64,000 nt of DNA from Kalaharituber pfeilii (taxonomy: Eukaryota > Ascomycota > Pezizomycetes > Pezizales > Pezizaceae): the NCBI GenBank assembly GCA_015179045.1, contig WHUZ01000037.1, positions 186,001 through 250,000 on the forward strand, written 5' to 3'. This document shows, in pieces, positions 18,123 through 43,235 of the stretch. Position 1 is the first letter of the stretch. Each line of letters begins with the position of its first letter. Made by a program: the position numbers and the translations under genes. The notes beneath the pieces are model-generated. The model was given only the letters and a program-made list of their open reading frames with translations. It searched no databases and had not been told where the DNA came from.

Positions 18123-21100
18123 ATGGATCATGAGAAATCTGAAGGTTCAGGGGGGTCCTCTATGGGGAGGAGTTTTTTGCAAAAACTTCCGCTCAAGTCC
18201 GTTTCCAAGATAACAGCGCTTCATCACCACATTCCCTAGGCTAACTCCTGCCAATGGACAGACGTCTATCTAGCTCAGAATTACCTGATGGAAAAAGGAG
18301 GAATACTTGGGCCAGCGGTGCCCCCTTTCGAGCTAATGTACTTCCACTCACGACAAATAATTTGTTCAGGGAATGTAATGAAAAACTAGCTACACTGGGT
18401 GCGTATAGTTGTATCCTCTTGCTAGGCCTGAGCCCTTGTTAACATAAAGCTAGCACAAAATCAACGTCAAATAGTTGAATGGACAACTTTAATTGGAGAG
18501 TTTGAGCAGGTCAAGAACGACTACCTAGCGAGGAATCAGCTGGAGGAGTTTAAGCTCGATCTATATATTCCGGTACAGGGAATGGCGCAGCCACACGATA
18601 GTAATCGCTTTGATTTACTGGAGGCTGTTCAAACATTCCTTTCAGATGCTGTATCACAAAAGGTTTGCTTTATTTTGATTTAAGTTAATTATTTACTTTA
18701 TTTATTTAACTTCAACAGTCACTTACCGCCTACTAGATGTGGCTAACTTGTGTGAGTCAAAAGGTTTGCTTGATTCAAGGGACTGCTGGGTCTGGAAAAT
18801 CGACCTTCACCCATCATCTTGCACATCGGTTATGGTCTGAGTACGACAAAGCCTCCAATCAAGCAACTGCAGTGGTCCCCTTGTTCATTTCGCTCTTCAG
18901 AGTATATATGTCTGGAATGCGCAACCGGGATCTAATAGCCGCTTTCTTTGCTAAACAAGGTTTTCGGGAAGACCAAATACAGCTGGTTCGGCGTCAACGG
19001 GAGTTCGTGTTTCTTTTGGATGGTTATGATGAAATTGAGAGACAGGACCGCAACTTTTTTATCGAAAATGAGCTTGACCTATGGAATGCGAAAGTTATCA
19101 TTACAAGTCGACCCGAATATTTACGCTCAGGGTATCGAAGCAAGTTTTACCCTCCTGGTCAGCCACAGCTGTTGCAAGAATACTGGATTGCGCCATTTTC
19201 GAAGTCAAACATCCAGCAGTATATTTCAAAATATCTAATGGCTAAACCTAATGGCCATTCAGTCAATGAGTATGAACATTATGTGCTTAGGCCTGACATA
19301 TGTGCATTAATTAGCAACCCGTTTCTTCTCAGAATGATTATGACAGTTACACCAGTTCAAAACAGAGACAATCTCAAGCGCGGAGATTTGTACCAACAAT
19401 TCATTGATTACTGGTTAGAGAATGCACAGGCCCGTTTAGATAAAATTCAGTTACCACAGGATCACCTTCAAACTTATTCTCAATTATATGAGAATAATTT
19501 CAAGTTTCAAGCACGACTCTTCTGTCAAAAGTTTGCATTAGCCTTGTACCGTCATCAGCTGTTGGAAGCTAGCTATCAACCTATCGACATCTTCCAAGAT
19601 TACAATTCCATCCCACAGGATCAGATGATATGGCAAAATTTTTTAGCTAACGATCCAAAAATACACCTTCTACGCTCTAGTTCACCACTTATCCGACAAG
19701 GGCACGCCTACAGATTTTTACACAAATCACTACGGGACTATTTGGTAGCTGAATCCCTCTGGCAAGACAAGTCACTTGTACAATGTAAAGACGATGCAAT
19801 TATCAATCAGTTCCATCTTGTGGATGATCCTGGTATTCTGGACTTTATCATTGAACGAGCGAAATATATTAGCACATTACAAGACAATCTGCTAAATCTG
19901 GTTGAACGATCGAAAACTGATGCCAATTTTTCAACCGCCTCAGCAAACGCAATTACAATTCTAGTCAGGGCTGGAAGAAGATTTGCGGGTCATGATTTAC
20001 GTGGAATACGGATTGCTGGAGCTGATATAAGTGGTGGCTGGTTTGACTGTACTCAATTCCAAAACGCAGACCTAAGTCAGGTTCGTCATTTTTTCTTTGC
20101 TCGTTACTTACATCCAACCTAATGTCATTGTAAGCAGGTTCGTTTTCATCAAGCTTGGCTTAGAGCAGCAAACTTCAGTAAAGCTTGCATGAACTCTGTT
20201 TCGTTTGGGGAAAGACCTTTCATGACAGCATCAGACCACCCATTTGCTAGCATAAATAGTATTGCCTTCTCTCCTGATGGTCAGTTGTTTGCTTCTGGCA
20301 GCAGCTGGGATGATCTTGTTCAGCTATGGTCGGTTCAGCATCAAGAGGTAATTCATACCTTCCCTCGTCATCATGGTTCGGTAGAGAGTGTCGCCTTCTC
20401 TCCTGATGGTCAGCTGCTTGCTTCTGGCAGCCGCGATAGGACTGTACGGCTATGTTCGGTTCAGCATCAAGAGGTAATTCATTCCTTCGAGGGCCATAGT
20501 GATTCGGTACAGAGTGTCGCCTTCTCCCCTAATGGTCTGCTGCTTGCTTCTGGCAGCAAAGATGACACTGTACGGCTATGGTCAGTTCAACGCCAAGAGG
20601 TCATTCATATCTTTGAGGGCCATCATAGCACGGTATTTAGTGTCACCTTCTCTCCTGATGGTCAGCTGCTTGCTTCTGGCAGCTTAGATAAGACTGTACG
20701 GCTATGGTCAGTTCAACGCCAAGAGGTCATTCATATCTTTGAGGGCCATCATAGCACGGTATTTAGTGTCACCTTCTCTCCTGATGGTCAGCTGCTTGCG
20801 TCTGGCCACGAAGATAAGACTGTATGTCTATGGTCAGTTCAACGCCAAGAGGTCATTCATGTCTTTAATGGCCATGGTGACCGGGTATGTAGTGTCGCAT
20901 TCTCTCCTGATGGTCAGCTGCTTGCTTCTGGCAGCCACGATGATACTGTACGGCTATGGTCAGTTCAACAACAACAGGCTATTCGTATCTTTGAGGGCGA
21001 TTATGGCTCGATAGATAGTGTCGCGTTCTCTCTTGATGGTCAGCTGCTTGCTTCTGGCGGCTTCGAAGGCAGTATATATCTATGGTCAGTTCCACGTCAA

Positions 21101-22258
21101 GATGCCATTCATATCTTCGAGGGCACTGGAAGCCGGATATATTGTTTTGCTATCTCTCCTGATGGTCAGCTGCTTGCTTCTGGCGGCTTGGATTATGCTG
21201 TATGGCTATGGTCAGTTCAACGACAAGAAGTCATTCATACTTTTCAGGCCAATGTTAAAATAGGGAGCATCGCCTTCTCTCCTGATGGTCAGCTGCTTGC
21301 TTTTGGCAGCCACAATTTTGGCAGCCGCACCCCCCGCCAAAACATTATTCAGCTATGGTCAGTTCAACGTCGAGAGCTCATTCATACCTTTGAAGGCAAT
21401 GATGTTAGCTCTGTGTTGACTGTCGCCTTCTCTCCTGATGGTCAACTGCTTGCTTCTATCTCCTTGAAAAGAGCTATACGGCTATGGTCAGTTCAACATC
21501 AAAAGATTATTTTTACCCTTAAGCATATAGAGTCGGAAACAATAAGTAGTGTCGCCTTCTCTCCTGATGGTCAGCTGCTTGCTGCTGTGGCCTGTGGCAC
21601 TATACGGCTATTTTCAGTTCAACATAAAAAGGTCATTCATGACTTTGATAACTTCAAAGGCAGGGGATTGGCCCGATTGGTATACAGGAGTGTTGCCTTC
21701 TCTCCTGACGGCCAGCTGCTTGCTTCTGGTGACAGTTATAAAACTGTACGGCTATGGTCAGTTCAACGTAAAGAGATCATTCATATCCTCGAGGGTCATA
21801 GTGATCCCGTAACGACTGTCGCCTTCTCTCCTGACGGTCGGCTGCTTGCTTCTAACAGCGAGGATAAGACTCTACGGCTATGGTCAGTGACCTCAGGGCA
21901 AGCCATGGCCCAGATCACCTTCTACGGTGAGGTTTTTTCTCTGGCTTGGGACCCTATCGCTACGGCTCCATACCTTATAACATTCGGTAGTCAAGCCGCA
22001 ATTCATCTATGTCAGGTGCAACTCAAGGCCGGTTGTACTCCAGACAATCACTCCTTAGATTTTACCTGTCAATGGGTATTACCCCAGAATAGACTTGTTC
22101 TTATGAATGCGAACATCCAAGGTGCGACAGGACTGGACTTGTTAAATCTTCGCCTGCTTAGACAACACAGCGCAGTTGGGGAACCGGCAGTTATACACCC
22201 CATCTGTTATGATTGTGAGGAGAAGGGCGAGGAGGAAGAGGGGGAGAAGAGAAGTTAA
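18123..22258 (+). CDS. NACHT-pentapeptide-WD40 NLR-like protein, copy 1 (1294 aa)
   Basis: The proposed model has five exons: 18123-18196, 18262-18398, 18454-18662, 18737-20080 and 20138-22258, all joining in phase. Intron 1 has a perfect ctaac branch site, and the same borders exist in copy 2. Residues 1-140 are an unassigned helical N-terminus. The NACHT NTPase follows, with Walker A GTAGSGKST (155-163), Walker B FVFLLDGYDEIE (230-241) and IITSRPEYL (261-269). Pentapeptide-like repeats span about 558-615, then 13 WD40 repeats of about 42 residues (about 626-1186) plus a degenerate 14th, and a Glu-rich tail. In this family the NTPase module oligomerises and the propeller senses a ligand; comparable fungal proteins control heterokaryon incompatibility or defence. 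The specific ligand and effector output here are unknown. The first exon is the least certain part. Confidence 0.88.
20249..21931 (+). repeat. WD40-encoding tandem array, 13 units of about 126 bp
   Basis: Units share the core FSPDGQLLASG...TVRLWSVQ and then IH.F.GH. Units 3, 4 and 5 are almost identical at the nucleotide level over about 120 bp, while units 7-11 are diverged and vary in length (unit 9 has about ten extra residues). The variable codons cluster at two spots: the four to five residues after LLASG and the two to three residues between GH and the next V. In propellers these are surface loop positions. Confidence 0.93.
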
Positions 22259-24650
22259 GGAAGAATATGTGACGCTCTTACATAGCTACAGTGGAATAGC
22301 AATTGTCTGGCGTGCCTCAAGGCACCGCCTGGGGGCTGATTTTTCTTCATTGTTTCCTGGCCCGAGCGTGCCTCTTCTTTTCTTCTGTTCTTGTTTATAA
22401 TGCTTAACAATCAATGCTTATCTCGCCATGGCATTAGGCTACAAGCGAGTACTGATATATATATTATTTAAAGAACCAATGCTTAGTTTATCACCGTTGT
22501 TTTCCATTCAGTGGCATCAGTAGTAAGTAGTACGTTTAGCGAGCGCCACTCAGTGGCGTGTTTGCTGCACTGCCCCCTTGATTCATATCATCTCGTAATA
22601 AACTTCCGTGTTCTGACTTGTTTGCCTATTTCCCTAAGTAGCTACTTTATTCGTTTAGCCCAAGTCATCAGCAGTAGCTTCACAGGTCAGCCAGGGCTGA
22701 TATCTATATCCCCTTTATTTTGTAGTATAATGAAAGTGGCGAAGTTGGGATGGCAGAGGGATCTAGTATGGCGGACTGCCCGCAGCTTACTACTGCGAGC
22801 AACCTTACACTGTTGAGATGTCAGAATGCGTGTCAATCACGTAAGGTGAAGTGGGATATTGGAAATGAAGGGGGATGATGGGGCACATAGGGTAGTAGGA
22901 TTGCGAGCGCATGCGGGGCAGAGTTACTCGCACTGCGTAGCAGCTAATACTACCGCTGGTCTCTGAGGGCGCCTTTATGCAGTATCCTGATATCTCTATC
23001 GCAAGGGAATCACGAACAAAACAATCCTAAATATTATCCCCTGCTTTTTTCTGAACCTTGCCAAGGGGCATGACAATGGCGGGTGGATGCAAGAAGCAAA
23101 GACACAGGTCAAATTCTAATGCAAGTCTTTGCCGTTGGTGAATACGGCGGCAGTAGGAACTACGGCCATCAGCAACGGGAAGTGAGGGAGTGGAAGGAAT
23201 TTGGGGAAGATTTCTACTGTCATTAGCAGGGACTCCGTTCTGCTATGCCCTTCCTTTACATTCATACCGTTGTATGTAGCACAGTTCAGTTCAAGTTTGA
23301 GAATATATCAGTCTTTGTGTACTTGAGAGAAGTGTCTATTTGTTTAGTAGTCTCTATTTCCCTCCCCGTTACTCCAATACCCAGTCTTCCGGATTCCTCC
23401 TATAGTACGTTCCCTTAGTACTCTTCTTGGAACGGAGGCTTACTACCCCACGCGTAGCTGGATACACCCCGCGGCTCGCCACCCCTAGCTGACCTCTGAG
23501 CGAAGCGAATGGGGACCTCTAGGCAGCGCGTGTGCAAGCCGTGTTTAAACCAATCCCGTAAGACACTCGCGGTCACGAGGGCGCAACCCGCTACGGCGCT
23601 CTTTTACAGCCCACAATATTACCTAACCTCCCCGTCCCAATGCTCAACCCTCGCGGCCGCGAGATAGTTTTCCGCTCATAAATACAGCACTGTGGTTTTC
23701 TATGCTCATGATTAAACGGTAGAAGATTTGCTTTCTCGATTTTTCTATTACGCAACTTCGAGGAGAATTAAAAGGAAGTCCTGAAGTTTGAGACTAGGAC
23801 TTAGCTACACAAAGCTGTACCATCTACATGCTCATATCCACTTGTGTTTTCTGCATGATGACGTCGCAGGCTAAATTACAGCTCTAAATGGCTGGGAAGA
23901 TTGTAGCGTGGCAGAGGTGGAGAAATGTCGAAAGCGAGTCATGGGGGTAGTGAAGCTGCGGAAATATATAAATGAATTGTGTTTTGTAATATGTATATGG
24001 AGAGGATTAGTTATCTGCATTTGTCTTGTCCGGTACTTCAAATTTCGGGAACTGCTGAGGAGGAACGTGAGACTGGAGAGTGTATGAGAAGTGCTAGTGG
24101 CGTTGGGCGTGTGGATATATGTTGCACAAGGGTCAGGGTCAGGGGAATTTAAGTGGATTCTCGAGCGGGACCTGTCTTTAAGACTTATGGTAGTAGCTAC
24201 CCTAAATAAATCGCCTGTGGAGTAGTACTCTTCCTGGATAGCGGTTGAGGGTAACTTTAAACTCCACAACTACCCCCTTGAGCCCGTCGCAAGTTATGAT
24301 AAAGACAGATTCTACCCCAGGCTTGACTCTCTGTAAATAGCCACATTCCATACCCGTCGGCACGTGAGACCGATGCTCGTATTGAACGCTAAATGTTACT
24401 AAGAAACTCCAGCTCGTTACAGGAAGTTTACTAGTTTTGCCTTCTGAGTTACTGTCGGGGATTTGTTTGTGGCTGCATATGCATGCATTTGGTGGAGAAT
24501 GTAAGTAGATGTCATGAACGAATCAGTTGGTGGCATGGATGAAGGTTTAGTATTTAGTTGATGAAAGGAAGCGCACCCTGCGGGCCAATAGATTGGTGTG
24601 GGTGATTTTGGACTTGAATTAAATTATAGTATCGTTGGCATGAGAGCAGG
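22259..24650. other. Duplicated 3' flank of NLR gene 1, no gene recognised
   Basis: This 2.4-kb stretch is kept in both copies of the duplication at high identity but has no convincing gene. A 101-codon frame (22511-22816) survives in both copies, but it begins with GTG and has no recognisable domain, so its conservation probably reflects recent duplication only. A GC-rich patch at about 23440-23660 contains gagcgaagcgaatgggg and a not-I-like gcggccgc. Confidence 0.5.
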
Positions 24651-24878
24651 TGAGGAAAGAAGAAAGAGGGAATGAAGCTTGTTCATTTCTGCCACGACCA
24701 TCGAGGTCGAAACAGCTGCTATATATACATGAGGGTTTGCCATAGACTTGTGGCGACAAAGGAAAAATTTTATACATGATGTTGAATAGACTCATATAGA
24801 ACGAGCCAATAGGTATCACCGTCAGGCGATGTCACGTGAGTGGCACGGGTGCCAAGATCTCACTAGAGTATTCTAACA
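24651..24878 (-). repeat. Copia 3' LTR
   Basis: In element orientation this is the 3' LTR. It starts TGTTAGAATACTC and ends TTTCCTCA on the minus strand. A G-rich polypurine tract (GATTGAGGGGGTG, plus-strand 24879-24891) sits immediately before it, as needed for plus-strand priming. Confidence 0.93.
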
Positions 24879-25371
24879 CACCCCCTCAATCGAGATTGTG
24901 CAAGCACAATGAGATTGCTAAAACGCTAAACATCCTTGACATCTATGACATCTTGACATCCATGATATCTGGCCTCGTTAAAACTCTCCAATGATCTCTC
25001 ATATCATTGCACGCAGTGCCATATACCGAAAAACCTTTGCAGGAGAAAACGGTAAAGGAAGAGAAAGAGTACCAGGTCGCTTGCCAGTGAGTTCCCTATC
25101 GCGCGGGCTTGTAGCAGCCTATTACTAAAGCATTCAGTCATTTCAACCTTGTCAACCATCGAATCACCACATCACCTCACATCACATCACCTCCTCACCC
25201 TAAGGAGTATCGTATTCAATGTTGTATCATCGTTACCCCCTCACCCTAAGGAATATGGTGCATGCACGTATGCAACTACACACGCACGGAATTACACACC
25301 CCCTGACGCCGACTTCACAAGTCCCATGCTTCGCATATGACGATGATGTGTCTCGCTTGGCAGAACCTTCG

Positions 25372-28257
25372 TTAGCAGGTTGCTATGAATGATCTTGCCT
25401 GGCCTAGGTCTTTCATGCTATACTTTTCGCATAGCCGCTTCTTGACGTACTGGATAGGGAGGGAATTGTTCGCATCGGCAGTGGGAGAAAATAAGAGGAT
25501 ATCATCCACCCATAGGAGCAAGAGGAGATTGTCCATGATGTATAGATTGGAGTCATATTTGGAACGTTGGAAACCCAGGGAGATGAGGAAGGCATCAATA
25601 TCTGAATACCATGCTCTGGGGGCTTGTTTGAGGCCGTATAGAGCTTTGTTAAGCTTGCAGACATAGGTGCGGCGGCATTCATCTGGCGACATTGACTTTC
25701 CTGGTATTCCATATCCTTGTGGGAGCTCCATATATACCTCTTCGTCGATTTCAGGGTGGAGGAAGGCAGTGATGACATCCATTTGCCAGATGTCCCAATC
25801 CAGAGCAGCAGCAATTGCGAATAGCATGCGTATTGTGGCGAGTTTCGGGACAGGAGCGAATGTTTCTCCATAGTCGTCTTGTTCAAACCCACGGAATACA
25901 AGCCTGGCTTTGAATCTTATGCTATTGTCAGGATTATGCTTGATCTTATACAACCATTTGCTCGAAATCACTTTGGCATCCTTTGGGACCTTGGATCTGG
26001 GTATGTATGACCATGTGCCATTTTTGATAAGGCAGCCGAATTCCTCATCCATTGCGCCTTTCCATTGTTTGGCTTGGAGGCTTTGGAGTGCCTGACGATA
26101 TGTGTTTGGTGTTGGTATGTCTGAGGGAGTGGCCATGGCACTATATACATATGATGTGAGGTCAAGTTTCCGAAGGTCATTGACTAGCCGGTTCAACGTT
26201 TTGAGTCGCTCGGAATCTTCAACAAGCTTAAACTGCATAGTACCTTCTTCGAGGGTTTCATAGTGGCGCGAGATCTGTTCACCAGCAGTTGTTGTTGATC
26301 CACGAATGTGAGTTAGGAGAGCAATGGCTGCATTGGTTCTTTGTTCAGCATTCTCATTGTTGAGGACAGCATAGGCAGAGAGGGCTTTGGCTTTGGGCTG
26401 GTAAGGGATGAATTTGATTGGTTTAGCTGACAGTCTCGAGGGTTGTGTAGGCCTGTTTGATGTGGGAGGCCGTGGTTGTTGAGGCACGGGCGGAGGTGCT
26501 GGAGCAGCTACCGGAGGTGGTGCCGGAGGTGGTGCCGACGGTAATGCTGGAGGTGTTACCGGAGGTGTCGACGCAAGTGCCGGAGGTGATACCGGAGGTG
26601 GCGAAGCAAATGCCGGAGGTGGTAGCGCTAGAGATGGTGCCGGAGGTGATACTGTAGGTGCTGCTGGAGGTGGTACAGGAGGTGACGAAGCACGAGTCGG
26701 AGGTGCTGCCGGAGGTGTTGCCGGAGCTGTGGCAGGAATCTGCTTTATGGAGAGGTGAGGGCGGGAGAGAGGATGATACATTTCGTCTTCTGCGAAGACA
26801 ATATTTGCTGATTCAAATACTCTTCTCTGCACAGGATCAAACACTCTCCATATTTTCTGGGTATCATGGACATATCCCATCAACAGACAGCGTCTAGTTC
26901 TTGATTCCAGTTTCTTCCTGAGTTCTAGTGGCACAAGTGAATAGGCAGGGCAGCCGAATGGTCGAAGGTGGCTAAGCGCAGGTTTCTGACCATACCACGC
27001 TTCATATGGGGTCATTTTATTGAGGGCGGAGGTTGGTGAACGGTTCCTGAGATATACGGCTGTTTTGATGGCTTCTGGCCATAGGTCGTTGAAGTCAATG
27101 CGGGCATCATGGACCATCGTTCTAGCCATGAGAAGTACTGTCTGGATCATCCTCTCACTCACACCATTCTGGTGTTGTGTGTATGGTGCGCATGGCTCCC
27201 ATATGACCCCCATATGCCTGAATTCCTCTTGCAGCTTCTTGTTTCCATATTCTGCACCATTGTCACTTCGAAATCTGATGATTCGGCTTGACTGGCTAAC
27301 TTTGTTTGTGTCGATGTCGGCTTTGACAATGTTCTTGAAGTTTGTCCATGCCTGGTGGACATCGGCAGCTGATTTGGAGGGCAGGAAGAACACCCAGGTC
27401 ATTCTGGTATAGTCATCAACAAATATGATGAAGTATCGATTTCCACCAAGTGACACTGGTAATAGTCCGCAGACATCTGAATGAATCAATTCGAGTGGTT
27501 TGGCTGCTCTTTGTTGTGGTATTCGACTGATCACTTCCTTTTGTTTACCCTCAATGCATGGGGCGCAGGTGTTTTTCAAACCAGGAATATGCTCGCTGGC
27601 TTTGAGGATAGTAATCTCAGAGGCAAGGCCGGATGCTAATGATTGTACGCTCTGCAGGTTCAAATGGCCGAGTCGACGGTGCCATATCTCGAGTGGGAGT
27701 GGCTTTATATTGGTAGGCTGATTTCCTGCTGATGCGCGCAGTGCCAGAGCTTTTTCGTCGATTACTTGAGAGTTGAGCTTGAACATATTGGCTAGGGGCT
27801 TGCAGCGAGCGATGACCTTTCCTGACTCCACGGTTTTATCAATTAACATGCAGAACCCACTGTCAAAGATAATGGTATGGTGGGAGGAGGGTGTGGTCAA
27901 CTTCCCTATGGATATCAAATTGCAGCCAATCTTCGGAGCATAGAGGACGTTTGAGAGGCGGAGTTTATGGTGATTTCCTTGAGGGTCGGTCACACGAAGA
28001 ATAATCGTGCCGCAGCATATAGCATTGATAGTTGAGTTGTTGCCTAGCACGATTGGGATGGGTTTTTGCAGGCGCTTCCAGTCTAGGAAGTAATTGAGGT
28101 TGCAAGAGATGTGATCTGAAGCGCCAGAATCGAAGAGGAAGGCAGAGCGTTGGAGGATTGAGGTTGCGGTTTGAAGGGAAACTCGAGCTGCATGGCAGGC
28201 ATATATCAGTAGTGGGCTTGGGTGGTAGGCATATGCAATGGAGTGTGGATGTGTCAT
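25372..28257 (-). pseudogene. Copia Pol: protease, integrase, truncated reverse transcriptase
   Basis: This 961-codon frame is in the same frame as gag, which ends at a UGA 28 bases upstream. Counting from the Met at 28257, the protease site is DSGAS (43-47). The integrase has H193/H198 and C231/C234 for zinc and D261, D332, E368 as the catalytic triad. A Pro/Ala-rich linker spans about 500-600, and the RT catalytic box is WVDD at 916-919 (YVDD in most relatives). The frame stops shortly after MKDLGQARSF, where Copia polyproteins normally continue for about 300 residues of RT thumb and RNase H. The remaining 490 bp to the LTR contain no such sequence. The product should protect and integrate DNA but could not complete reverse transcription without help. 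Confidence 0.9.
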
Positions 28258-28281
28258 GGCAGCGCGTGAACTTGAGTCGGT

Positions 28282-28287
28282 TAGTCA
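28282..28287 (-). promoter_or_regulatory. Possible stop-codon readthrough site (UGA CUA) between gag and pol
   Basis: On the minus strand the gag stop reads GAT TGA CTA ACC. UGA followed by CUA is the best-known readthrough context in eukaryotes, and the pol frame continues in the same frame without another stop. The alternative is a plain TGG-to-TGA mutation. Confidence 0.45.
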
Positions 28288-29286
28288 ATCCATCTCTGTG
28301 AGTCGTGGTATCTCGATTCGGTCTTCAAGGTTTGAGGTGGCTGTATTGGTTGTGATGGCAACGTTTGCTGTTGATTGGCCACCTTTCTCGAGCTCTTTAA
28401 CAACTTTTTGGGCTCGCTTCCGTGTGAAGCATTCTTCTAACTTATGCCCTTTTCGTCCACAGTAGGTGCACAATGGTCGATTGTCGGAATTGTTGTTTCT
28501 ATCATCCTGCTTTCGGTAATTTTTCTTATGCTCACGGCGGCCACGGCGGTCACGGTCACGGTGGTCACGGCGGTCCCGGCGGTCCCTCCTTTTCGACTTG
28601 TGGTCGTCTTTATTTCTAGTACTGACTAGAGCCTTCGAATTTTGGCGGCGGTGACCAAGCTTTGTCTCTCGTTCGATCAGTTTGTTGAGGACTTGTATGT
28701 ATGAGGTTGTGGAGTTTGAGTGAGCATGAGTGACAATGTCATCATAATCTCGGGGAAGGTTGTTGGTTAGCTGGGAGATAAGGTCTTGGTCGGTGAGTTT
28801 CTTTTCTGTGAGAGCAAGACGATCTTGGTAGGACTTTAGTTTTGAACCATATTCGTCCATCGAGTTATAATTGACAAACTGTTCTCGATAGAACTCTTGG
28901 ATAAGGTTTTGTCCGTTGCTTATGCCACTGGTTCCACCATAGTGATCTTTGAGGATTTTCCATTGCTTGGCTGGATCCTCTTCGTGGGCGATATACGACT
29001 GGACAGTTGGTGAGCAGAACTGGAAGATAAGCATTGCTGCTTTCTTCTGTTTCTTCTTGTATGTTGCTACGTCATTAGATATTGTGACAGAGGAGGTACG
29101 TGTTTGACTGCCAGAGGAGGGGGTTTCAGGTATGGTTTCAGTCCCTTGCACGACTTCCCAGAGGTCTTCTCCATTGAGCAGAAATTTCATGGAGAAGCTC
29201 CATGCTTGGTAGTTGGTGCCGTTGAGTATTGGTGCGCGGAGACCGTCCTTTGTGGTGAGAAAGGTTTGATCGTTGGATGCGGACAT
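28285..29286 (-). CDS. gag: Copia Gag (333 aa)
   Basis: The start is ATG at 29286, about 170 bp inside the 5' LTR. The N-terminal two thirds resemble Copia capsid proteins: APILNGTNYQAWSFSMK near residue 20, then a helical region with KQWKILKDHYGG-type blocks. A basic Arg/Lys/Asp-rich linker (RRDRRDRRDHRDRDRRG) precedes one CCHC zinc knuckle, CTYCGRKGHKLEEC (273-286), which binds the genomic RNA. The frame closes with UGA at 28287-28285. It assembles virus-like particles in the cytoplasm in related elements. It is fully open and so likely functional. Confidence 0.9.
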   Translation of the reverse strand: MSASNDQTFLTTKDGLRAPILNGTNYQAWSFSMKFLLNGEDLWEVVQGTETIPETPSSGSQTRTSSVTISNDVATYKKKQKKAAMLIFQFCSPTVQSYIAHEEDPAKQWKILKDHYGGTSGISNGQNLIQEFYREQFVNYNSMDEYGSKLKSYQDRLALTEKKLTDQDLISQLTNNLPRDYDDIVTHAHSNSTTSYIQVLNKLIERETKLGHRRQNSKALVSTRNKDDHKSKRRDRRDRRDHRDRDRRGRREHKKNYRKQDDRNNNSDNRPLCTYCGRKGHKLEECFTRKRAQKVVKELEKGGQSTANVAITTNTATSNLEDRIEIPRLTEMD

Positions 29287-29442
29287 TGTGGTTTGAGATA
29301 TCGAGGGTCAAATTGAATGTTGAGTCGAGGATCAAAATTAAGGGCACGATAGGTGGGACCGAGTGTTGAGGGAAGGAGATAAATATCAGGGTAAAAGTGG
29401 TATAATGGGTACGATATATACGCAGATGATTAGTGCGTCAAA

Positions 29443-29454
29443 GGGCTCATAACC
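29443..29454 (-). other. Primer binding site, internal initiator-Met tRNA type
   Basis: Directly inside the 5' LTR the minus strand reads GGTTATGAGCCC. The complement, gggctcataacc, matches the anticodon stem-loop of eukaryotic initiator tRNA-Met (CAU anticodon) rather than a tRNA 3' end. This is the half-tRNA priming mode known from Drosophila copia and Ty5. Confidence 0.7.
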
Positions 29455-30477: not shown

Positions 30478-31517
30478 CTAGAACAGGTCATCAAGGAGGG
30501 GCTTTCTGCGGCCTTCATCAGGCGGCGGCACGAAACCCTCATCGGGCGGCACGATACCCTGAGGGGGCGGCACGGGCTTTTTGCTGCGGTCATCGCCAGT
30601 TGGGTATTTATAGTTTATTTCCTGGTCAAATGTCTGTATTACCACAGAATATTCAATATCTTTGGGCTTCCTAGTTTCTCCGAGGAGTGGCGTCAACGCA
30701 GCCGCCGTTATTGGAACAGTAGCCTCTACCTCAAGATTGTTCTGGCAGTTAGCGCATCCTTCAACATTCCAACGGCTCAAGATAGGCTCTGAGCCAATTA
30801 GCAATGGCTTATCCATTCCAGAGACCCGAAGGTAGGTTTTGATAACAAAAGACCCTTTATATTCAGCCCGGTTGATGTTGTGCACTCTCTTCAAGAGGGC
30901 CACTGGCTCAGGTGGGATATCGAGAAACTTTCTGCGCCTGTCACCATCCAACAAAGCGTCAATAGCCCCTGGTCCATAAGTATACCCGAGTGTAGTAATA
31001 TCGACCACATCAGCAGAGGTATAATATATTCCGGCACGTTCATCTTTCAAAAATGGATACAGAGGAGTATGCATGTCAAGGATAGTTCCTGGTGGGAGCC
31101 CTACTACTGGGTCAGTAACTATCGTCCCAGCATAGCCATTGATGAAGCTCAAGCTGCCCTCTTGGGTGCAACCGTGCAGCTCCTGCCACTTCCACATCAT
31201 GAAGTCGATGAAACAATGATGCAGATAAAAGATTGGATCAAAGCTGGCTGTCTCGTTACAACCCATGTCACCATTTGCCCCCCGGTACTCGGGCTTGGGG
31301 TTGGCATTGTATGCCCCCTCCTGATAATATCCTCCCACAGCGAGGTGCATGCCATTGTGCGGGCTTTCCAGCGAAACAACGTAGAAAGGGTCTTGGCTGG
31401 AGTCGTTGCCATGATCCTTCATCCATTGGTTCTGAGATGTGGTGTTAGAGAAGACCGTGTAATTGGGCGCCCTGAGGCAGTACCGGAGCCTCTTGCGAAT
31501 GGAGGTTGCGTCAGCTG
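30478..31517 (-). pseudogene. Tyrosinase, C-terminal half, truncated by a LINE
   Basis: The minus-strand frame is open from the poly-T boundary at 31517 to a TAG at 30478-30480, about 346 codons. It holds the CuB half of a type-3 copper site: SPHNGMH (HxxxH) and FDPIFYLHHCFIDFMMWKWQ with the paired His. About 230 residues of C-terminal domain follow, ending in a Pro-rich tail. Tyrosinases oxidise phenols to o-quinones for melanin synthesis. The CuA half (three His) and the start are missing. The frame runs upstream of the first Met (YCLRAPNYTVFSNTTSQNQW) straight into the LINE poly-A tail. No CuA sequence is present on the far side of the LINE, so that half was lost by deletion or rearrangement. 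Confidence 0.88.
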
Positions 31518-31548
<31 letters not shown>

Positions 31549-32137: not shown

Positions 32138-35100
32138 CTAGAACTTGACCCCAGCGAAGAAATTCTCTAAAACGTCATACTCCTCCCCATTCTCCGCCTT
32201 TCTTTTCCACTCCTTTCCCATGTCGCTCCACCTCTCAAAACCTTCTGGGCGGTTCTCCTGACTTCTGCATCGGAAAGCGAGATGCTCCCCCGTTTGCACC
32301 TCCCCACACCTGCACCTATCCGATTCCGCCACCCCTAGCTTCTTCAACCACCTAGCACACCTTCCTCGCTCCAGTCGCAATGCAGTGAAGTTTGATGTCG
32401 CCATCCTACTCCACTCCATGACCTTTCCTCCTCCAAAGCCCTCCACTTCTCTCTTCTCCTACCTAGCCTCTCTGCGCACTCCACTTTCACCTTTTCACAC
32501 TCTCCTCCCCATGACATCTCCTCGCCCTCCTCCGAGAACCTTGACCACTGCCCCTGCCAGCGGTCCAAAACGCTTTCATATCCATCCCCCTCTTCCAGGG
32601 CCCACTGCACCCCCCAGTCCTTCCAGTTTCTCATCCCCTCCTCCTTCTCCTCATTCCCTCTCTTGAAATCTCCTGTGCATAGTTCTGCAAGCTCCGATGG
32701 CACCTCCACTTCCCGAACCATCGCCCTTGCCTGTGCTGCGTCCAGGATCACCTCCACCCCCTCCACTCCGCACACTGCGTTCACCCCCTCTACCCCTGTG
32801 CCTCTCCCCCCTCCAGCTGCCTTCTTTAATGCTTGCAGCTGTACTCTCTCCATTTCTCTTCTCCATTCCGTCTGTCCTCTCCAACCTATCTCACTACCCC
32901 ACATGGCTACCGCTCTAATCATGCCCGTATAAATCTGTCTCCAGCTCCTCGGGCTTATTCCCCAATCCCTATTTCCCAACCCCGCTAGTGCTCCGGTCAA
33001 CCTTCTTGCTCTGCTGACTCTGTTTTTCCAGTGTGCCGTGAAGGTCAAATTCTCATCAAAGATGACCCCCAGCCATTTCAGAAACTCCCCCTCCTTCTTC
33101 TGCCTCTTTCCTACGCCAAACGTTATCATCTCCCACTTCGACTCTTCCAGTGGGATCTAATCCTCCTCTGCCACCTCCTTCACCTCCTTCTTTACCTTCT
33201 CTCTCAGCCTCCCCATATCCCAATAGCCATGCCAGTCTAGGACCGTTACAGCTATATCATCCACATATGATGGAGCCTCTACTTCTACTCCTGTTGCTAC
33301 CCCCCTGTCACAGACTAGCCAAGCAGGAATGGTCCGCATTAAGGAAATAAAGCCCCGGACGCCGCGGATCAAAGGATAGGCCCCGCGCCCATGAATAAGT
33401 CACTGCTCAGGAAATTAAGTCACCGCTCAGATATGCCCCGCGCCCATGAATAAGTCACCGCTCAGGGAATTAAGTCACCGCTCAGGAAATAAACCACCGC
33501 CCAGGGAAAAGTACAGGAAACTACAGTCTCCTATGTCATGTCCAGTTTTTGTATTTAATTCATGCCTTCCCCTCATGTACATAAGTCCTCAAGCAACGTC
33601 TTGTTCCCTGCCTATATCTACAACAGTACCGTACCGTAAGACCGCCCTGTCAAACTTGTGACCGGGACCTGCGAGTGACGTACTGCGGCTCTTTACACCC
33701 CCTGACTCTCCTCTCAATCTTCTCCATTGTTGGTGCCATGAATATCAGGAAGAGCACCGGTGATAGGGGGGACCCTTGTGGGACCCCCACATTTGCTCTT
33801 CCTCTCCCTCTCTCTCTTCCATCCCACTCTACACTAAATTCTCTCATCCCCATGAAGTCCTCCAGCCACTCCCTCTTCCTTCTTACCTCCTCGCTCCCCT
33901 TTTCTTCTACTCTCCTCAGCACCACCTCCTTTCTGACAATATTGAACCCCCCCTTTACATCCGCCGTAACCCATGCTACTTCCCCCCCCTCTATGCAGGC
34001 ACCTTTGTGTCTTTGTCACTGCCCTTGCCATTGCCTGCACTGCATTCCTCCCCTTCCTAGCCCCCAGCTGCAGTCTATGGAACAGTCCAGTCTCCTTCTG
34101 AAGCCTGTTTGCCATGACCTTCTCCCCGATCTTCCCTATGCAGTTGATCAGGTTGATTGGTCTCCAAGCTTTCGTCGTTTTGATATCCTTGCCGGCTTTG
34201 GTATCATGACGACCTTAATCTCCTTCCACTCTCTGGGTGTTGAGTTCTGGATCCACTTCTCTGCAATTTCACCTACCAGCTGGTCTCCCAATGGCGTCTT
34301 CAATGCCGCTTTAATGAGGCGGTACCCGATTCCATCCGGACCTGGTGCTGACGTGTTCTTTGTTCTTCTTAAGGCCTCTCTCACCTCTCTCTCCACTCTC
34401 CTTCTCTCCTCCTCGCTCACGTCCCGCCTGCCTCTCTCCTTTTCTCTTCCAACCTCCTCCCTCCCCTCCTCTTCTTCAAAGGCAAAATTTCTCTTTACTA
34501 ATGCTTCTGCCTTCTCTGAGTCTCCCACCAGCTCTTTCCCCTCGTCATCTGTAAGAGTCCCCATCTTATCTCCTCTCCCAAAGGGGTCCTTTGCTACTCT
34601 CACTAACCTCCACGGATCGCTGATCCCCTCCTCCTCTATGAAATCTCTCCAGCACCTTCTCTTCTCTTCTCGGATTTTCCACTTCATCATCCGCACCGCC
34701 GCCTTCCAGCCCCTCACTCTCTCCTCATTTTCCAATCTTGCACGAGCTCCTACTCCTCCCCTTGCAAGCCTGTTCACCTCCTTTCTCAACTCTTCAATCT
34801 CCTCACTCCACCACTTCTTGCTCCTTCCGCTTACTCGTACCTTCTTCTCTAGTAACTTTTTCCATCTCTTGGGCTTCTGGTACGCATCCCCTTCACCTAT
34901 TCTCTCTATCCACTTCTTTTTCTCCTGCTCACCCCACTCCCCATTCAACCCCTCTACCTCCTCCATCCGATCCCAATCTATACGTACCCTCTCCTCTTCC
35001 CTTTTCTCTCTCTCCTTCTCCTCAAACTCTACCACCAGTGCTGAGTGATCCGAGCCTAGATTCAGGTACTCCACTTCTACTCCATTCACCCCTCGGTACC

Positions 35101-35654
35101 ATACCAGATCTATTCTTGACTCCCTCAGTCTCCCTTCTACCTCTCTCCTCCATGTCCCTACTCTCTCACCTGCTAGGCTAAAACCTGCCTGCTCCATTCT
35201 CTCTCTTAGAATCCTCCCTCTGCTATTCTCCCCCGTCCCTTCCAAGCTCCACATCTCACTGTGTGCATTCCAGTCTCCTAGCAGTACGCAGCTTCCTTCT
35301 ACCTCCAGAACCTTCTCCAGCCATCCTTCGAATTCTTCCTCTTTCCAGTTTCCATCCACATATACCCCCCCTACCCACACCTCCCCGACTCTACCCCAAG
35401 CTACATTACTATCCCCCCTTCTTTCCATCCCGTGCCTCCCCTTCTTTTCCCAGCCAACCACCCCTCTCTTCTCTCCTACTTCTCCTATCCTTTCCAGACT
35501 TGGGTGGGAACTTGTCTTCCACTCCCCTCCTACCCTTGTCTTCCACCCCTCCGCTTCCCATCCCAGCTCCCACTGTTCTTTGTAAGATATTCTCCCTCCA
35601 TACATGCCCCACTACCGAGCTCCCCCCAACGTTCAGGTATCCTACCTTTACCAT
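32138..35654 (-). pseudogene. LINE 1 ORF2: AP endonuclease and reverse transcriptase
   Basis: Starting at MVKVGYLNV (35654), the endonuclease shows LLGDWNAHSEMW, RIDLVW and LGSDHSALVVEF, matching the catalytic Asp/Asn/His blocks of APE-type nucleases. The RT follows with APGPDGIGYRLIKAAL, GVPQGSPLSPVLFLIF and YVDD. A C-terminal Cys-rich finger (RCRCGEVQTGEHLAFRC) ends at 32138. The longest open piece is 34148-35605. Frameshifts occur near 35600, 34150 and 33920, and a solo LTR separates the RT blocks at 33306-33697. I see no RNase H signature. This enzyme nicks DNA and primes reverse transcription on the target. Confidence 0.85.
33306..33697 (+). mobile_element. Solo LTR (392 bp) inside LINE 1, CCCCC target duplication
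   Basis: The sequence begins TGTCACAGAC and ends GGCTCTTTACA, giving TGT...ACA ends, and is flanked on both sides by CCCCC (33301-33305 and 33698-33702). It interrupts the LINE RT exactly between the codons for RRVRG and VATG, as judged against LINE 2. Inside are repeated blocks of gcgcccatgaataagtcac and aagtcaccgctcag, and a tacataag motif that may be a TATA-like element, which suggests plus orientation. No internal coding part remains, so it arose by LTR-LTR recombination. Confidence 0.85.
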
Positions 35655-35721
35655 AATGCTTCAGGTACCCCACTGCTCTCAGCCTCCCAATCCCCTTGAG
35701 GCGCCTTTCCCAAGATATCTC

Positions 35722-38596: not shown

Positions 38597-38640
38597 TCTT
38601 TCTGCTTCCCTGACTTATTTCCGTTTCTGAAACCTGCCGC

Positions 38641-38898
38641 TTGTATCACTACCTTATATGGTATGTCACCGCTGATCGCGCCTTGCTGTATTCGGCAGGT
38701 ATTGCCTGTTCTTAGCCGCTAGCTATTTCCTTTCAGGTTTAAATCAATAGGTCAGTCCACACCGCTGGGGCTATGCTAGCACCAATTAGATGTAACTGCC
38801 CCTATTCCTCAAAATTGTGTGGGGATTCTTCAGAAAGACTCTGAAAACTTGACCTTGGGAAAACGACTCGCAATCTTCTGAATTCTGTACAATGAAGG
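38641..38898. other. Junction between LINE 1 and duplicated segment B
   Basis: About 260 bp between the LINE 5' end and the duplication breakpoint. It contains neither the missing tyrosinase CuA half nor any recognisable gene. Confidence 0.4.
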
Positions 38899-39274
38899 TG
38901 AAATTGATGACGATGAATGATGTAGGTTCATGTATCATGTAGTTAAATTTAGCCGGTCCTGTGGTTTCAGACTGTCTTTTACAATTTGGAGCCCCTTCGT
39001 TTACCCTTGTTGATTTGAATCTCATCCTACAAGGTTTGTTACAGGGTTGCAAAATCCTTCTATCATAATTGGTTGCAAAGACCATGGCAGGCCTAGAGCA
39101 TACCATTCACTCAACGAACGTACGTGTATTGCAACCGTAAGGTAACAAACAATTATCATCCACCATCGCCCTACAGCTTCACCGTGAACACAAAGGCTCT
39201 CTACCCAAATCTCGTTTCCCTTACTCTGTACTACATCTGAAAATTTTGTGATTCTGCTCCACTAGTTATTCAAG

Positions 39275-42200
39275 ATGGATCATGAGAAATCTGAAGGTTC
39301 AGGGGGGTCCTCTATGGGGAGGAGTTTTTTGCAAAAACTTCCGCTCAAGTCCGTTTCCAAGATAACAGCGCTTCATCACCACATTCCCTAGGCTAACTTC
39401 TGCCAATGGACAGACGTCTATCTAGCTCAGAATTACCTGATGGAAAAAAGAGGAATACTTGGGCCAGCGGTGCCCCCTTTCGAGCTAATGTACTTCCACT
39501 CACGACAAATAATTTGTTCAGGGAATGTAATGAAAAACTAGCCACACTGGGTACGTATAGTTGTATCCTCTTGCTAGGCCTGAGCCTTTGTTAACATAAA
39601 GCTAGCACAAAATCAACGTCAAATAGTTGAATGGACAACTTTAATTGGAGAGTTTGAGCAGGTCAAGAACGACTACCTAGCGAGGAATCAGCTGGAGGAG
39701 TTTAAGCTCGATCTATATATTCCGGTAGAGGGAATGGCAGACCCACACGATAGTAATCGCTTTGATCTACTGGAGGCTGTTCAAACGTTCCTTTCAGATG
39801 CTGTATCACAGAAGGTTTGCTTTACTTTGATTAAGTTAATTATTTACTTTATTTATTTAATTTCAACAGTCACTTACCGCCTACTAGATGTGGCTAACTT
39901 GTGTTGAGTCAAAGGTTTGCTTGATTCAAGGGACTGCTGGGTCTGGAAAATCAACCTTCACCCATCATCTTGCACATCGGTTATGGTCTCAGTACGACAG
40001 TGCCTCCAATCAAGCAACTGCAGTGGTTCCCTTGTTCATTTCACTTTTCAGAGTATATATGTCTGGAATGCGCAACCGGGATCTGATAGCGGCTTTCTTT
40101 GCTAAACAAGGTTTTCGTGAAGACCAAATACAGCTGGTTCGGCGTCAGCGGGAATTCGTGTTTCTTTTGGATGGTTATGATGAAATTGAGAGACAGGACC
40201 GCAACTTTTTTATCGAAAATGAGCTTGACCTATGGAATGCGAAAGTTATCATTACAAGTCGACCCGAATATTTACGCTCAGGGTATCGAAGCAAGTTTTA
40301 CCCTCCTGGTCAGCCACAGCTGTTGCAAGAATACTGGATTGCGCCATTTTCGAAGTCAAACATCCAGCAGTATATTTCACAATATCTAATGGCTAAACCT
40401 AATGGCCATTCAGTCAATGAATATGAACATTATGTGCTTAGGCCTGACATATGTGCATTAATTAGCAACCCGTTTCTTCTCAGAATGATTATGACAGTTA
40501 CACCAGCTCAAGGCAGAGACAATCTCAAGCGCGGAGATTTGTACCAACAATTTATTGATTACTGGTTAGAGAATGCACAGGCCCGTTTAGATAAAATTCA
40601 GTTACCACAGGATCACCTTCAAACTTATTCTCAATTATATGAGAATAATTTCAAGTTTCAAGCACAACTCTTCTGTCAAAAGTTTGCATTAGCCTTGTAC
40701 CGTCATCAGCTGTTGGAAGCTAGCTATCAACCTATCGACATCTTCCAAGATTACAATTCCATCCCACAGGATCAGATGATATGGCAAAAATTTTTAGCTA
40801 ACGATCCAAAAATACACCTTCTACGCTCTAGTTCACCACTTATCCGACAAGGGCACGCCTACAGATTTTTGCACAAATCACTACGGGACTATTTGGTAGC
40901 TGAATCCCTCTGGCAAGACAAGTCACTTGAACAATGTAAAGACGATGCAATTATCAATCAGTTCCATCTTGTGGATGATCCTGGTATTCTTGACTTTATC
41001 ATTGAACGAGCGAGATATACTAGCACATTACAAGACAATCTGCTAAATCTGATTGAACGATCGAAAACTGATGCCAATTTTTCAACCGCCTCAGCAAACG
41101 CAATTACAATTCTAGTCAGGGCCGGAAGAAGATTTGGGGGTCATGATTTACGTGGAATACGGATTCCTGGAGCTGATATAAGTGGTGGATGGTTTGACGG
41201 TACTCAATTCCAAAATGCAGACCTAAGTCAGGTTCGTCATTTTTTCTTTGCTCGTTACTTATATCTGACCTAATGTCATTGTGAGCAGGTTCGTTTTCAT
41301 CAAGCTTGGCTTAGAGCAGCAAACTTCAGTAAAGCTTGCATGAACTCTGTTTCGTTTGGGGAAAGACCTTTCATGAAAGCATCAGACCACACACTTGCTA
41401 GCATAAATAGTATTGCCTTCTCTCCTGATGGTCAGTTGTTAGCTTCTGGCTGCGACTGGGATGATCTTGTTCAGCTATGGTCGGTTCAGCATCAAGAGGT
41501 AATTCATACCTTCCCTCGTCATCATGGTTCGGTAGAGAGTGTCGCCTTCTCTCCTGATGGTCAGCTGCTTGCTTCTGGCAGCGACGATAGGACTGTACGG
41601 CTATGTTCGGTTCAGCATCAAGAGGTAATTCATTCCTTCGAGGGCCATAGTGATTCGGTACAGAGTGTCGCCTTCTCCCCTAATGGTCTGCTGCTTGCTT
41701 CTGGCAGCAAAGATGACACTGTACGGCTATGGTCAGTTCAACGCCAAGAGGTCATTCATATCTTTGAGGGCCATCATAGCACGGTATTTAGTGTCACCTT
41801 CTCTCCTGATGGTCAGCTGCTTGCTTCTGGCAGCTTAGATAAGACTGTACGGCTATGGTCAGTTCAACGCCAAGAGGTCATTCATATCTTTGAGGGCCAT
41901 CATGGCACGGTATTTAGTGTCACCTTCTCTCCTGATGGTCAGCTGCTTGCGTCTGGCCACAGGGATAAGACTGTATGTCTATGGTCAGTTCAACGCCAAG
42001 AGGTCATTCATATCTTTGAGTGCCATCATGGCAGGGTATTTAGTGTTACCTTCTCTCCTAATAGTCAGCTGCTTGCTTCTGGCAGCGAAGATGCGACTGT
42101 ACGGCTATGGTCAGTTGAACGACAACAGGCTATTCATATCTTTCAGGGCCATGAGGGTGGCGTATGTGGTGTCGCATTCTCTCCTGATGGCCAGCTGCTT

Positions 42201-43235
42201 GCTTCTGCCGGCGACGATAGCACTTTACGGCTATGGCCAGTTCAACATCAAAGGGCCATTCATGTCTTTGAAAACCATGATCAATCGGTAAAGAGTGCTG
42301 CATTCTCTCCTGATGGACAGCTGCTTGCTTCTGGCAGCGGAGATAACGCTGTACAGCTACAGTCAGTTCAACGTCAAGAGGCCCTTGATATCTTTAAGAG
42401 CAAATATGGCAAACCATCAAGGGGCTTCGGGTTCTCTCCTGATGGTCAGCTCCTTGCTGCCTTCTTTGACTATCAGGGACGGCTATGGTCAGTTCAACAT
42501 CAAAAGCTCATTCATGTCTTTAATGACATTAGAGGCGTGGCACGGTGTCACTGCTTCTCTTCTGATGGTCAACTGCTTGCTATTGGCGATCATGGCACTG
42601 TACGACTATTCTCCCTTCAACGTCGAGAGACCATTTTCAGATTTGAAGGCCTTAGCTTCATATGGTGTGTCCGTTTCTCTCCTGATGATCAGCTGCTTGC
42701 TTCTAGCGGTGACGATAGTACTATACGACTATGGTCAGTTCAACACCAAGAGATCATTCATATTTTTAAGGGCCATCGTGCTAGGGTAGATGATATCGAG
42801 TTCTCTCCTGATGGTCAGCTGCTTGCTTCTGGCAGTGACGATCGCACTGTACGGCTATGGTCAGTATCCTCAGGGAAGGCCATGGCCCACATGAACTTCT
42901 ATGACGAACGCATATCTATAGCTTGGGACAATATTGCTAGGAATCCGTACCTTATAACAATATGTAGTAGCAGCGTAACTCATCTATGTCAGGTGCAACT
43001 CAAGGCCGGTTGTACTCCAGACAATCACTCCTTAGATTTTACCTGTCAATGGGCATTACCCCAGAATAGACTTGTTCTTATGAATGCGAACATCCAAGGT
43101 GCGACAGGACTGGACTCGTTAAATCTTCGCCTGCTTAGACAACACAGCGCAGTGGGGGAACCGGCAGTTTTACACCCCATCTGTTGTGATTGTGAGGAGA
43201 AGGGCGAGGAGGAAGAGGGGGAGAAGAGAAGTTAA
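39275..43235 (+). CDS. NACHT-pentapeptide-WD40 NLR-like protein, copy 2 (1236 aa)
   Basis: Exons are 39275-39348, 39414-39550, 39606-39814, 39888-41231 and 41289-43235, parallel to copy 1 and all in phase. Intron 2 has a stronger donor (GTACGT) than copy 1 (GTGCGT). Walker A GTAGSGKST (155-163), Walker B FVFLLDGYDEIE and IITSRPEYL are unchanged. By eye the NACHT exon differs from copy 1 at about 34 bases, roughly half changing an amino acid. At its start a T gain and an A loss compensate, changing SQK to ESK. The array has 12 full WD40 repeats plus a degenerate 13th: repeats 1-5 match copy 1 closely, 6-11 do not, and the C-terminal tail matches again. Both genes are open throughout, so both may be functional. 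Confidence 0.88.
41400..42908 (+). repeat. WD40-encoding tandem array, 12 units of about 126 bp
   Basis: Same unit as in the first gene. Units 3-6 are the most alike at nucleotide level. Units 7-11 have no clear one-to-one partner in copy 1. Differences again concentrate after LLASG and around the GH..V junction; for example the five residues after the LLAS core read SKDDT, SLDKT, HRDKT, SEDAT and GDDST in successive units. Confidence 0.92.

What the first reader, a model, noticed from the sequence alone, without database searches (positions are those of the whole stretch)
18123..43235. Two recently duplicated NACHT-WD40 genes whose WD40 arrays diverge faster than the rest
The genes at 18123-22258 and 39275-43235 are about 97-98% identical in the NACHT exon and again in the C-terminal tail. 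WD40 repeats 1-5 match almost exactly, but repeats 6-11 do not align one to one, and the repeat number differs (13 against 12). Flanks that agree around a core that disagrees point to repeat-specific change: unequal exchange or gene conversion among units. That is the mode known from Podospora HET-E/HET-D/HNWD incompatibility genes. The domain set here (NACHT, pentapeptide, WD40) with an unassigned N-terminus may be a separate recognition system.
Basis: partly seen in the sequence, partly recalled or inferred. Interest (0 to 1): 0.88.

Follow-up and report, generated by a model that had tools for sequence, protein, structure and literature searches.

The report
Fungal receptor genes with swapped sensors
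A fungus, probably a relative of desert truffles, carries seven immune-receptor-like genes that are nearly identical outside their sensor part; one of the two in this window is a mosaic whose second sensor half belongs to a different lineage, and the amino-acid changes crowd into loops that likely face the target, so this looks like a way to diversify recognition, though what is recognised is untested.

Summary
The pattern is real. Genes A (18123-22258) and B (39275-43235) lie in about 7-kb duplicated blocks. NACHT exon, tail and the nearest non-coding flank are 97-99% identical, WD40 units 1-4 97-100%, units 7-14 only 59-75%. But A and B are not a sister pair: they are two of seven copies on one contig. 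Blades 1-6 join B with A (support 100/99); blades 7-14 join B with four other copies (100/100), and an A+B pairing there is rejected. So B is a mosaic with a switch at blade 6/7 of a 13-14-blade array, likely two propellers. On top of this, replacement changes crowd into two loops per blade: positions 16, 18, 39, 40, 42, around conserved D17 and V41, matching the spacing of the four codons under diversifying selection in Podospora NWD genes (PMC1805685). The DUF7708 region common in this family was not found in these seven genes. Function, alleles and expression are untested.

The parts
17752..24638 (+). Duplicated block holding gene A (copy 1)
   Evidence: blastn of A region against B region: 94.9% over 17752-21301 and 93.5% over 21698-24638, the piece between not aligned in those two matches
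38899..45590 (+). Duplicated block holding gene B (copy 2)
   Evidence: same alignment
18123..18683 (+). Gene A short N-terminal exons and linker; exon model uncertain, no Pfam domain above cut-off
   Evidence: tblastn with Kalaharituber P0008 matches only from its residue 367; three pieces scanned, none above cut-off
18737..20080 (+). Gene A NACHT exon (Pfam NACHT 18764-19240) with pentapeptide-like end; predicted 57-bp intron 20081-20137
   Evidence: PF05729 E 3.8e-16; place; intron read by eye (inference)
20258..21016 (+). Gene A WD40 blades 1-6
   Evidence: unit coordinates
21017..22006 (+). Gene A blades 7-14, type shared with paralogue C (C292:312,676), different from B
22007..22258 (+). 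Gene A conserved C-terminal tail
   Evidence: 98.0% nt identity to B
39888..41273 (+). Gene B NACHT open frame (holds the start of the predicted intron near its end)
   Evidence: PF05729 E 8.6e-16
41409..42167 (+). Gene B WD40 blades 1-6, A-like
   Evidence: nearest relative A in blades 1-5, A and C in blade 6; clade A+B 100/99
42168..42983 (+). Gene B blades 7-13, of the lineage of paralogues D, E, F, G: the exchanged block
   Evidence: clade B+D+E+F+G 100/100; best match elsewhere in the assembly 78%
42042..42293 (+). Switch point in B (blade 6 to blade 7)
   Evidence: diagnostic sites: blade 6 8 A/C-type, 2 D-G-type, 1 neither; blade 7 2, 16 and 1
42984..43235 (+). Gene B conserved C-terminal tail

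Best explanation
Genes A and B are two of seven NACHT-WD40 paralogues on one contig; B's sensor array is a mosaic and replacement changes crowd into two loops per blade, so these genes likely encode intracellular recognition receptors (NLRs) whose sensors are probably renewed by exchange between paralogues and by selection on loops predicted to face the target. Shown: near-identity of NACHT exon, tail and nearest non-coding flanks; a switch of array lineage at blade 6/7 in B; variable residues concentrated in two loops per blade around conserved D17 and V41, with replacement changes above the framework synonymous rate. Predicted: 13-14 blades folding as two propellers of about seven. Inferred: flanks and the NACHT half are kept alike by gene conversion or recent duplication while sensor blocks are exchanged by non-allelic recombination; ligand binding to the loops opens the NACHT switch and starts a defence or cell-death response, as in HET-E. 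As the usual N-terminal region was not found, signalling may need a partner protein.
For: Seven copies at 95-100% NACHT aa identity, all on contig C292; the 2.3-kb 3' flank of A has seven long copies, all there (two of them in two pieces; elsewhere only 14 pieces under 200 bp). B: nearest relative changes from A (blades 1-5) to the D-G group (blades 7-14). Trees: A+B 100/99 in blades 1-6, where B+D-G is rejected (p-AU 0.0018); B+D-G 100/100 in blades 7-14, where A+B is rejected (p-AU 1.6e-92). Framework pS in blades 8-13 exceeds that of the NACHT exon both for A-B (0.242 against 0.061) and for B-E, of one array type (0.179 against 0.053). Loop windows: pN above pS in 21 of 21 gene pairs (blades 2-6) and 20 of 21 (blades 8-13); framework 4 of 21 and 0 of 21. 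In 213 units from 30 genes the five positions with pN above 0.2 are 16, 18, 39, 40, 42. Window pN against framework pS: 5.3-fold, p 3.8e-13, for A-C. In the model 28 of 35 such residues fall in loops against 99 of 259 others. Podospora positions: PMC1805685 section 9.
Against: Within the loop windows alone pN above pS is significant for A-C (p 1.2e-4) but not singly for E-F (0.13), E-G (0.33) or D-E (0.089); gene pairs are not independent. pS is raised in the windows too (0.105 against 0.046 in A-C), so mutation or exchange adds to selection. Second halves of E, F and G are nearly alike (window pN 0.042-0.058), so not every copy is diverging there. Blade slots of the A/C and D-G types may be mismatched, which would inflate A-B divergence. 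No donor closer than 78% to B's blades 6-13 is in the assembly, so the donor is inferred. One genome, no isolates, no expression data. The N-terminal gene model is uncertain. The model has pTM 0.52, mean pLDDT 73, and its coordinates were not seen, so two propellers and one common face rest on blade count, fold matches and general knowledge.
Confidence: 0.72

Rival explanations
1. Unit-by-unit change: unequal crossing-over and conversion among single repeats inside each array after a recent A/B duplication.
For: Exact duplicate units: E2=E4 and two units of L028 within genes, A3=B3 between genes, three pairs among 213 units. Units within a gene differ by a median of 12 nt (720 pairs), units of different genes by 30 (21,858 pairs).
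Against: Blades 7-14 of B form one well supported clade with D-G; the switch is one block, with 16 of 88 scored sites there going the other way. It does not explain framework pS 0.24 between A and B.
Confidence: 0.15
2. Relaxed constraint: the two loops are free to drift, no selection for change.
For: Three of four single pairs do not reach significance for pN above pS inside the windows.
Against: pN exceeds pS in 41 of 42 comparisons and exceeds framework pS 2.4- to 6.4-fold in four of four pairs tested. The other two loops (positions 5-9, 25-28) stay conserved, pN 0.000-0.141.
Confidence: 0.1
3. Assembly artefact: repetitive arrays collapsed or joined wrongly.
For: Short-read data are described as a poor basis for such arrays (PMC12222747, passages). 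The read type behind this assembly is unknown.
Against: B's second half has no match above 78% elsewhere in the assembly and its blades 1, 2 and 4 are not identical to A's, so B is not a join of two present sequences. The array frames are open in all seven genes.
Confidence: 0.06
4. RIP-type hypermutation of repeated DNA produced the array differences.
For: RIP was proposed as a possible source of new repeats in Podospora (PMC1805685, passages).
Against: RIP gives transitions (established knowledge); blades 8-13 show 63 transitions and 77 transversions in A-C, 68 and 75 in B-E; NACHT 15 to 11 and 18 to 20; non-coding flanks 14 to 5 and 14 to 3.
Confidence: 0.04
5. The receptors sense microbes, for instance endohyphal bacteria, rather than other individuals of the species.
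For: The closest named non-fungal relatives are in Mycoavidus and Glomeribacter; such genes are reported as shared between Mortierellomycota and Mycoavidus (PMC11291939, passages).
Against: Nothing here tells self from microbial targets; it is a rival on the ligand, not on the mechanism of diversification.
Confidence: 0.45

Closest known systems
Podospora anserina HNWD/NWD genes (HET-E, HET-D, HET-R)
   Same: NACHT plus WD40 array of similar units; the most variable positions flank two conserved residues 18 apart, as the four selected Podospora codons do; double 7-blade propeller predicted there too (PMC12222747, passages).
   Different: No HET domain found; pentapeptide-like linker; seven copies on one contig; a whole second-half block exchanged; loop windows in the second half also vary in length. 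Podospora laboratory mutants arose by intragenic events only, though exchange between genes apparently occurs in the wild (PMC2873952 section 9).
NACHT-pentapeptide-WD40 proteins of Mortierellomycota and of the endobacteria Mycoavidus and Glomeribacter
   Same: Domain order NACHT, pentapeptide, WD40; 32-43% identity in the NACHT region.
   Different: This genome's genes have closer relatives in Peziza echinospora (56%), Kalaharituber (54%) and Tirmania (48%).
Peziza echinospora P0098 (1518 aa)
   Same: NACHT, C-terminal tail and WD40 array of the same kind. Of its 6 usable units positions 39, 16, 18 and (tied) 31 vary most; 40 ties with 27 and 29; 42 is not among the top seven.
   Different: Carries a long N-terminal region (PF17100 precomputed) of the kind not found in the seven genes here. 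Three other relatives tried gave no usable units.
Solved highly repetitive propeller protein 2ymu
   Same: Best Foldseek match of A's array, TM 0.61/0.73, 39% identity; the double propeller 1nr0 also matches, TM 0.50/0.56.
   Different: Fold likeness only; function of 2ymu not examined.

Membership tests
Fungal NLR (NACHT STAND receptor with repeat sensor) | NACHT NTPase domain | tested here: met
   PF05729 E 3.8e-16 (A) and 8.6e-16 (B), above cut-off
Fungal NLR (NACHT STAND receptor with repeat sensor) | C-terminal WD, ANK or TPR repeat domain | tested here: met
   PF00400 with 12 and 10 matched stretches
Fungal NLR (NACHT STAND receptor with repeat sensor) | Recognisable N-terminal effector domain | tested here: inconclusive
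   Three N-terminal pieces of A: no Pfam family above cut-off. DUF7708-region match in 0 of 7 cluster genes. Exon model uncertain; about half of fungal NLR N-termini lack an annotation (PMC4986451, passage), so this does not exclude membership
Podospora HNWD family | N-terminal HET domain | tested here: not met
   No HET match in the pieces of A scanned; exon model uncertain; B's N-terminal pieces not scanned
Podospora HNWD family | WD units of over 80% identity within a gene | tested here: inconclusive
   Units 2-6: mean 72-75% in A, B, C and 79-82% in D-G; 22 other paralogues 60-94%
Podospora HNWD family | Diversifying selection at four codons flanking two conserved residues 18 apart | tested here: met
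   Positions 16, 18 around D17 and 40, 42 around V41, plus 39, have the highest pN, each above its pS; counting method, not the HyPhy tests of the paper; the match of numbering rests on spacing
Podospora HNWD family | Double 7-blade propeller | tested here: inconclusive
   14 blades in A, 13 in B; model pTM 0.52; fold matches to two-propeller proteins
Podospora HNWD family | Controls heterokaryon incompatibility | not testable with these tools
   Needs confrontation of isolates
NACHT-pentapeptide-WD40 family (Mortierellomycota, Mycoavidus, Pezizales) | NACHT followed by pentapeptide repeats and WD40 | tested here: inconclusive
   Order NACHT then WD40 met; relatives carry PF00805 and align with B's exon end, but neither NACHT frame nor array frame of A or B showed PF00805 among the families printed (only the best 25 of 69 and 63 were shown for the array frames)

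The most novel reading that the evidence does not exclude
A two-tier, antibody-like sensor repertoire: a seven-gene cluster with a homogenised NACHT half, in which whole second propellers are exchanged as cassettes between paralogues while the target-facing loops of both propellers are rewritten, including their length, by strong selection, in receptors that have lost their own effector domain and work through partners.
Probability: 0.35. Interest if true: 0.75.

Novelty: new variant of a known kind. Interest (0 to 1): 0.52.

Why it matters
Fungal non-self recognition is worked out for few genes. Here the same variable positions as in Podospora appear in a different NACHT family of another fungus, and one gene shows that a sensor can change by a block swap as well as by repeat shuffling. 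With 22 of 23 sampled distant paralogues carrying four or more WD40 units in the stretch held, the genome offers a large natural set in which to ask how recognition repertoires are made and kept.

Tried and rejected
Considered and set aside: A and B as a sister pair (rejected for blades 7-14 and for the NACHT exon; N-terminal region plus tail do not decide); RIP as main source (transversions); simple assembly join; a donor for B elsewhere in the genome (none above 78%). Species name: not obtained; nearest named fungi only. N-terminal domain: three exon pieces gave nothing above cut-off. Paper searches on the family in Pezizales and on mosaic or converted propellers gave nothing on point in the listings, within the held open-access library only.

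Not done: isolate comparison, expression, HyPhy-type site tests, full arrays of the distant paralogues (for the 23 only 1.5 kb on either side of the NACHT match was held), the C135 cluster. Rows dropped: units not exactly 42 aa long; one of 30 genes with fewer than 3 units; slot 11 in the blades 7-14 tree and 3' flank in the flank tree; 17 diagnostic sites at which B matches neither side. L022 had no long frame but two units. Of four relatives tried, three gave no usable units. Slot matching of blades between the A/C and D-G types is uncertain and may inflate divergence; B to D-G is safer.
Full report
What is in the window. The window is C292:186001-250000 of an unnamed 78-Mb, 360-contig assembly. 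Gene A has its NACHT frame at 18737-20122 and its WD40 frame at 20123-22258; gene B at 39888-41273 and 41274-43235. Pfam confirms NACHT (E 3.8e-16 and 8.6e-16) and WD40. The shared block runs well past the genes, 17752-24638 against 38899-45590.

Seven copies. A search of the own genome with B's NACHT exon gave 97 matches (a lower bound; a gene matches exon by exon). Seven are at 95-100% identity and all lie on C292, at 99,460, 116,825, 204,737 (A), 225,888 (B), 260,966, 312,676 and 335,407. I call the other five G, E, D, C and F in that order. The 2.3-kb flank downstream of A has seven long copies, all on C292, at 94-97% apart from the query itself; the copies beside D and G are in two pieces, and 14 further matches elsewhere are under 200 bp. 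The next paralogues are at 74% or less.

Identity along the block. The 650 bp before the NACHT exon are 97.3-99.7% identical among all seven, the tail 94.8-100%, and 700 bp of 3' flank 97.9-99.1% among six (G has a break there, 68%). The array is the exception. A against B: blades 1-4 96.9-100%, blade 5 90.5%, blade 6 81.7%, blades 7-14 59.2-74.8%. Not all pairs differ so: E, F and G have nearly the same second half (framework pS 0.009-0.028, window pN 0.042-0.058).

B is a mosaic. At sites that separate A and C from D, E, F and G, B is A/C-type at 54 of 57 scored sites in blades 1-6 and D-G-type at 72 of 88 in blades 7-14; 2 and 15 more sites match neither. The NACHT exon has 21 A/C-type and 5 D-G-type sites, the five being the second to sixth in order. 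In all 91 and 80 sites fall in 38 runs; 10,000 shuffles averaged 86, minimum 63. Trees agree: A+B 100/99 in blades 1-6, with B+D-G rejected (p-AU 0.0018); B+D+E+F+G 100/100 in blades 7-14, with A+B rejected (p-AU 1.6e-92). In the NACHT exon A+B is also rejected (p-AU 0.0007) and A goes with C. N-terminal region plus tail do not decide (p-AU 0.54). Framework synonymous divergence A-B is 0.242 in blades 8-13, 0.061 in the NACHT exon and 0.019 in the tail; for B-E, of one array type, 0.179, 0.053 and 0.019: the second halves look older than the block that holds them. The closest match to B's blades 6-13 elsewhere in the assembly is D, at 78%. So the mosaic is shown by the sequence; the donor and the kind of recombination are inferred.

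Loop-restricted change. A and C share all 14 blades and so allow a clean comparison: framework pS 0.046, pN 0.026; loop windows pS 0.105, pN 0.261. Across the 21 pairs, window pN exceeds window pS in 21 (blades 2-6) and 20 (blades 8-13); framework pN exceeds pS in 4 and 0. Against this: singly, pN above pS inside the windows is significant for A-C (p 1.2e-4) but not for E-F, E-G or D-E (0.13, 0.33, 0.089); against framework pS all four are significant. In 213 units of exactly 42 aa from 30 genes (seven here, 23 distant) the positions with pN above 0.2 are 16, 18, 39, 40 and 42, each with pN above pS, though pS is also high there (0.21-0.33); D17 and V41 between them are conserved (pN 0.069 and 0.079). 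Of 29 genes with three or more units, 23 have pN above pS at these positions, 7 at the rest. In Podospora the selected codons are 7 and 9 around 8, and 25 and 27 around 26 (PMC1805685 section 9); 8 to 26 is 18 residues, as from V41 to D17 of the next unit here. The match of numbering is my own inference from that spacing.

Structure. The AlphaFold model of A's array frame (7 sequences, mean pLDDT 73, pTM 0.52) gives four strands per regular unit. Variable positions are in loops in 28 of 35 cases against 99 of 259 others, counted on A's seven 42-aa units. They fall in and beside the b-c and d-a loops, which in WD40 propellers lie on one face (established knowledge, not computed here). Foldseek's best match is 2ymu, a highly repetitive propeller protein; the double propeller 1nr0 is at rank 24. 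Podospora HET-E is also modelled as two seven-blade propellers (PMC12222747, passages).

N-terminus. Kalaharituber relatives carry DUF7708 (P0008 residues 152-302). A tblastn with P0008 finds its N-terminal region upstream of NACHT in 16 of 23 distant paralogues, but in none of the seven cluster genes, where the match starts at residue 367 or later. Upstream lengths held were 1.5 kb for the 23 and about 1.7-3.2 kb for the seven. Three N-terminal pieces of A gave no Pfam family above cut-off. The exon model there is uncertain. A helical N-terminal NLR domain shared by Pezizomycotina, Mortierellomycetes and Mycoavidus is in print (PMC9815663, passages); whether it is this region was not tested.

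Relatives. Best named relatives are Peziza echinospora 56%, Kalaharituber pfeilii 54% and Tirmania nivea 48% (Pezizales, recalled), among many unnamed ones at 47-56%, then endobacteria (Mycoavidus, Glomeribacter) and Mortierellaceae at 32-43% (120 of 1085 hits listed). The sharing of NACHT-PPR-WD40 receptors between Mortierellomycota and Mycoavidus is in print (PMC11291939, passages). I found no paper on them in Pezizales (the held library only).

How it most likely works. Shown: copies, mosaic, loop-restricted change. Inferred: NACHT halves and flanks are kept alike by conversion or recent duplication; sensor blocks move between paralogues by non-allelic recombination; loops are selected for new binding. 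By analogy with HET-E, binding would open the NACHT switch and start a response; as no effector domain was recognised, the receptors may act through partners. The ligand, self or microbial, is open.

Verdict. Real, statistically clear, of a known kind (Podospora-like recognition genes), with a variant feature: exchange of a whole second-half block. Interest 0.52.

Noticed in passing
25372-29307 (-): Copia-type retrotransposon gag and pol open frames between the two genes.
   Followed up: no
33707-35693 and 52451-54436: Inverted pair of sequences, 74% identical, overlapping frames with endonuclease (34148-35611, -) and reverse-transcriptase (53050-54789, +) matches; LINE-like.
   Followed up: no
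30478-31548 (-): Tyrosinase-domain open frame.
   Followed up: no
about 17462-17567: Short element with terminal inverted repeats just upstream of gene A, seen by eye; MITE-like.
   Followed up: no
20081-20137: Predicted 57-bp intron in frame with one stop codon; the intron before the NACHT exon appears flanked by the repeated string AAAAGGTTTGC (by eye).
   Followed up: no
G000:C135:576715-689961: A second cluster: seven matched places at 64-66% to this NACHT exon, two of them partial.
   Followed up: no
L041 (C292:113887-121386), first 445 bases of the reverse strand: Open frame that looks like a DDE transposase piece beside paralogue E; label by eye, no family search.
   Followed up: no
P0016, P0102, P0123 and other proteins: Many NACHT-pentapeptide-WD40 relatives in fungal endobacteria, one named HNWD1 by its source (P0205).
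   Followed up: partly
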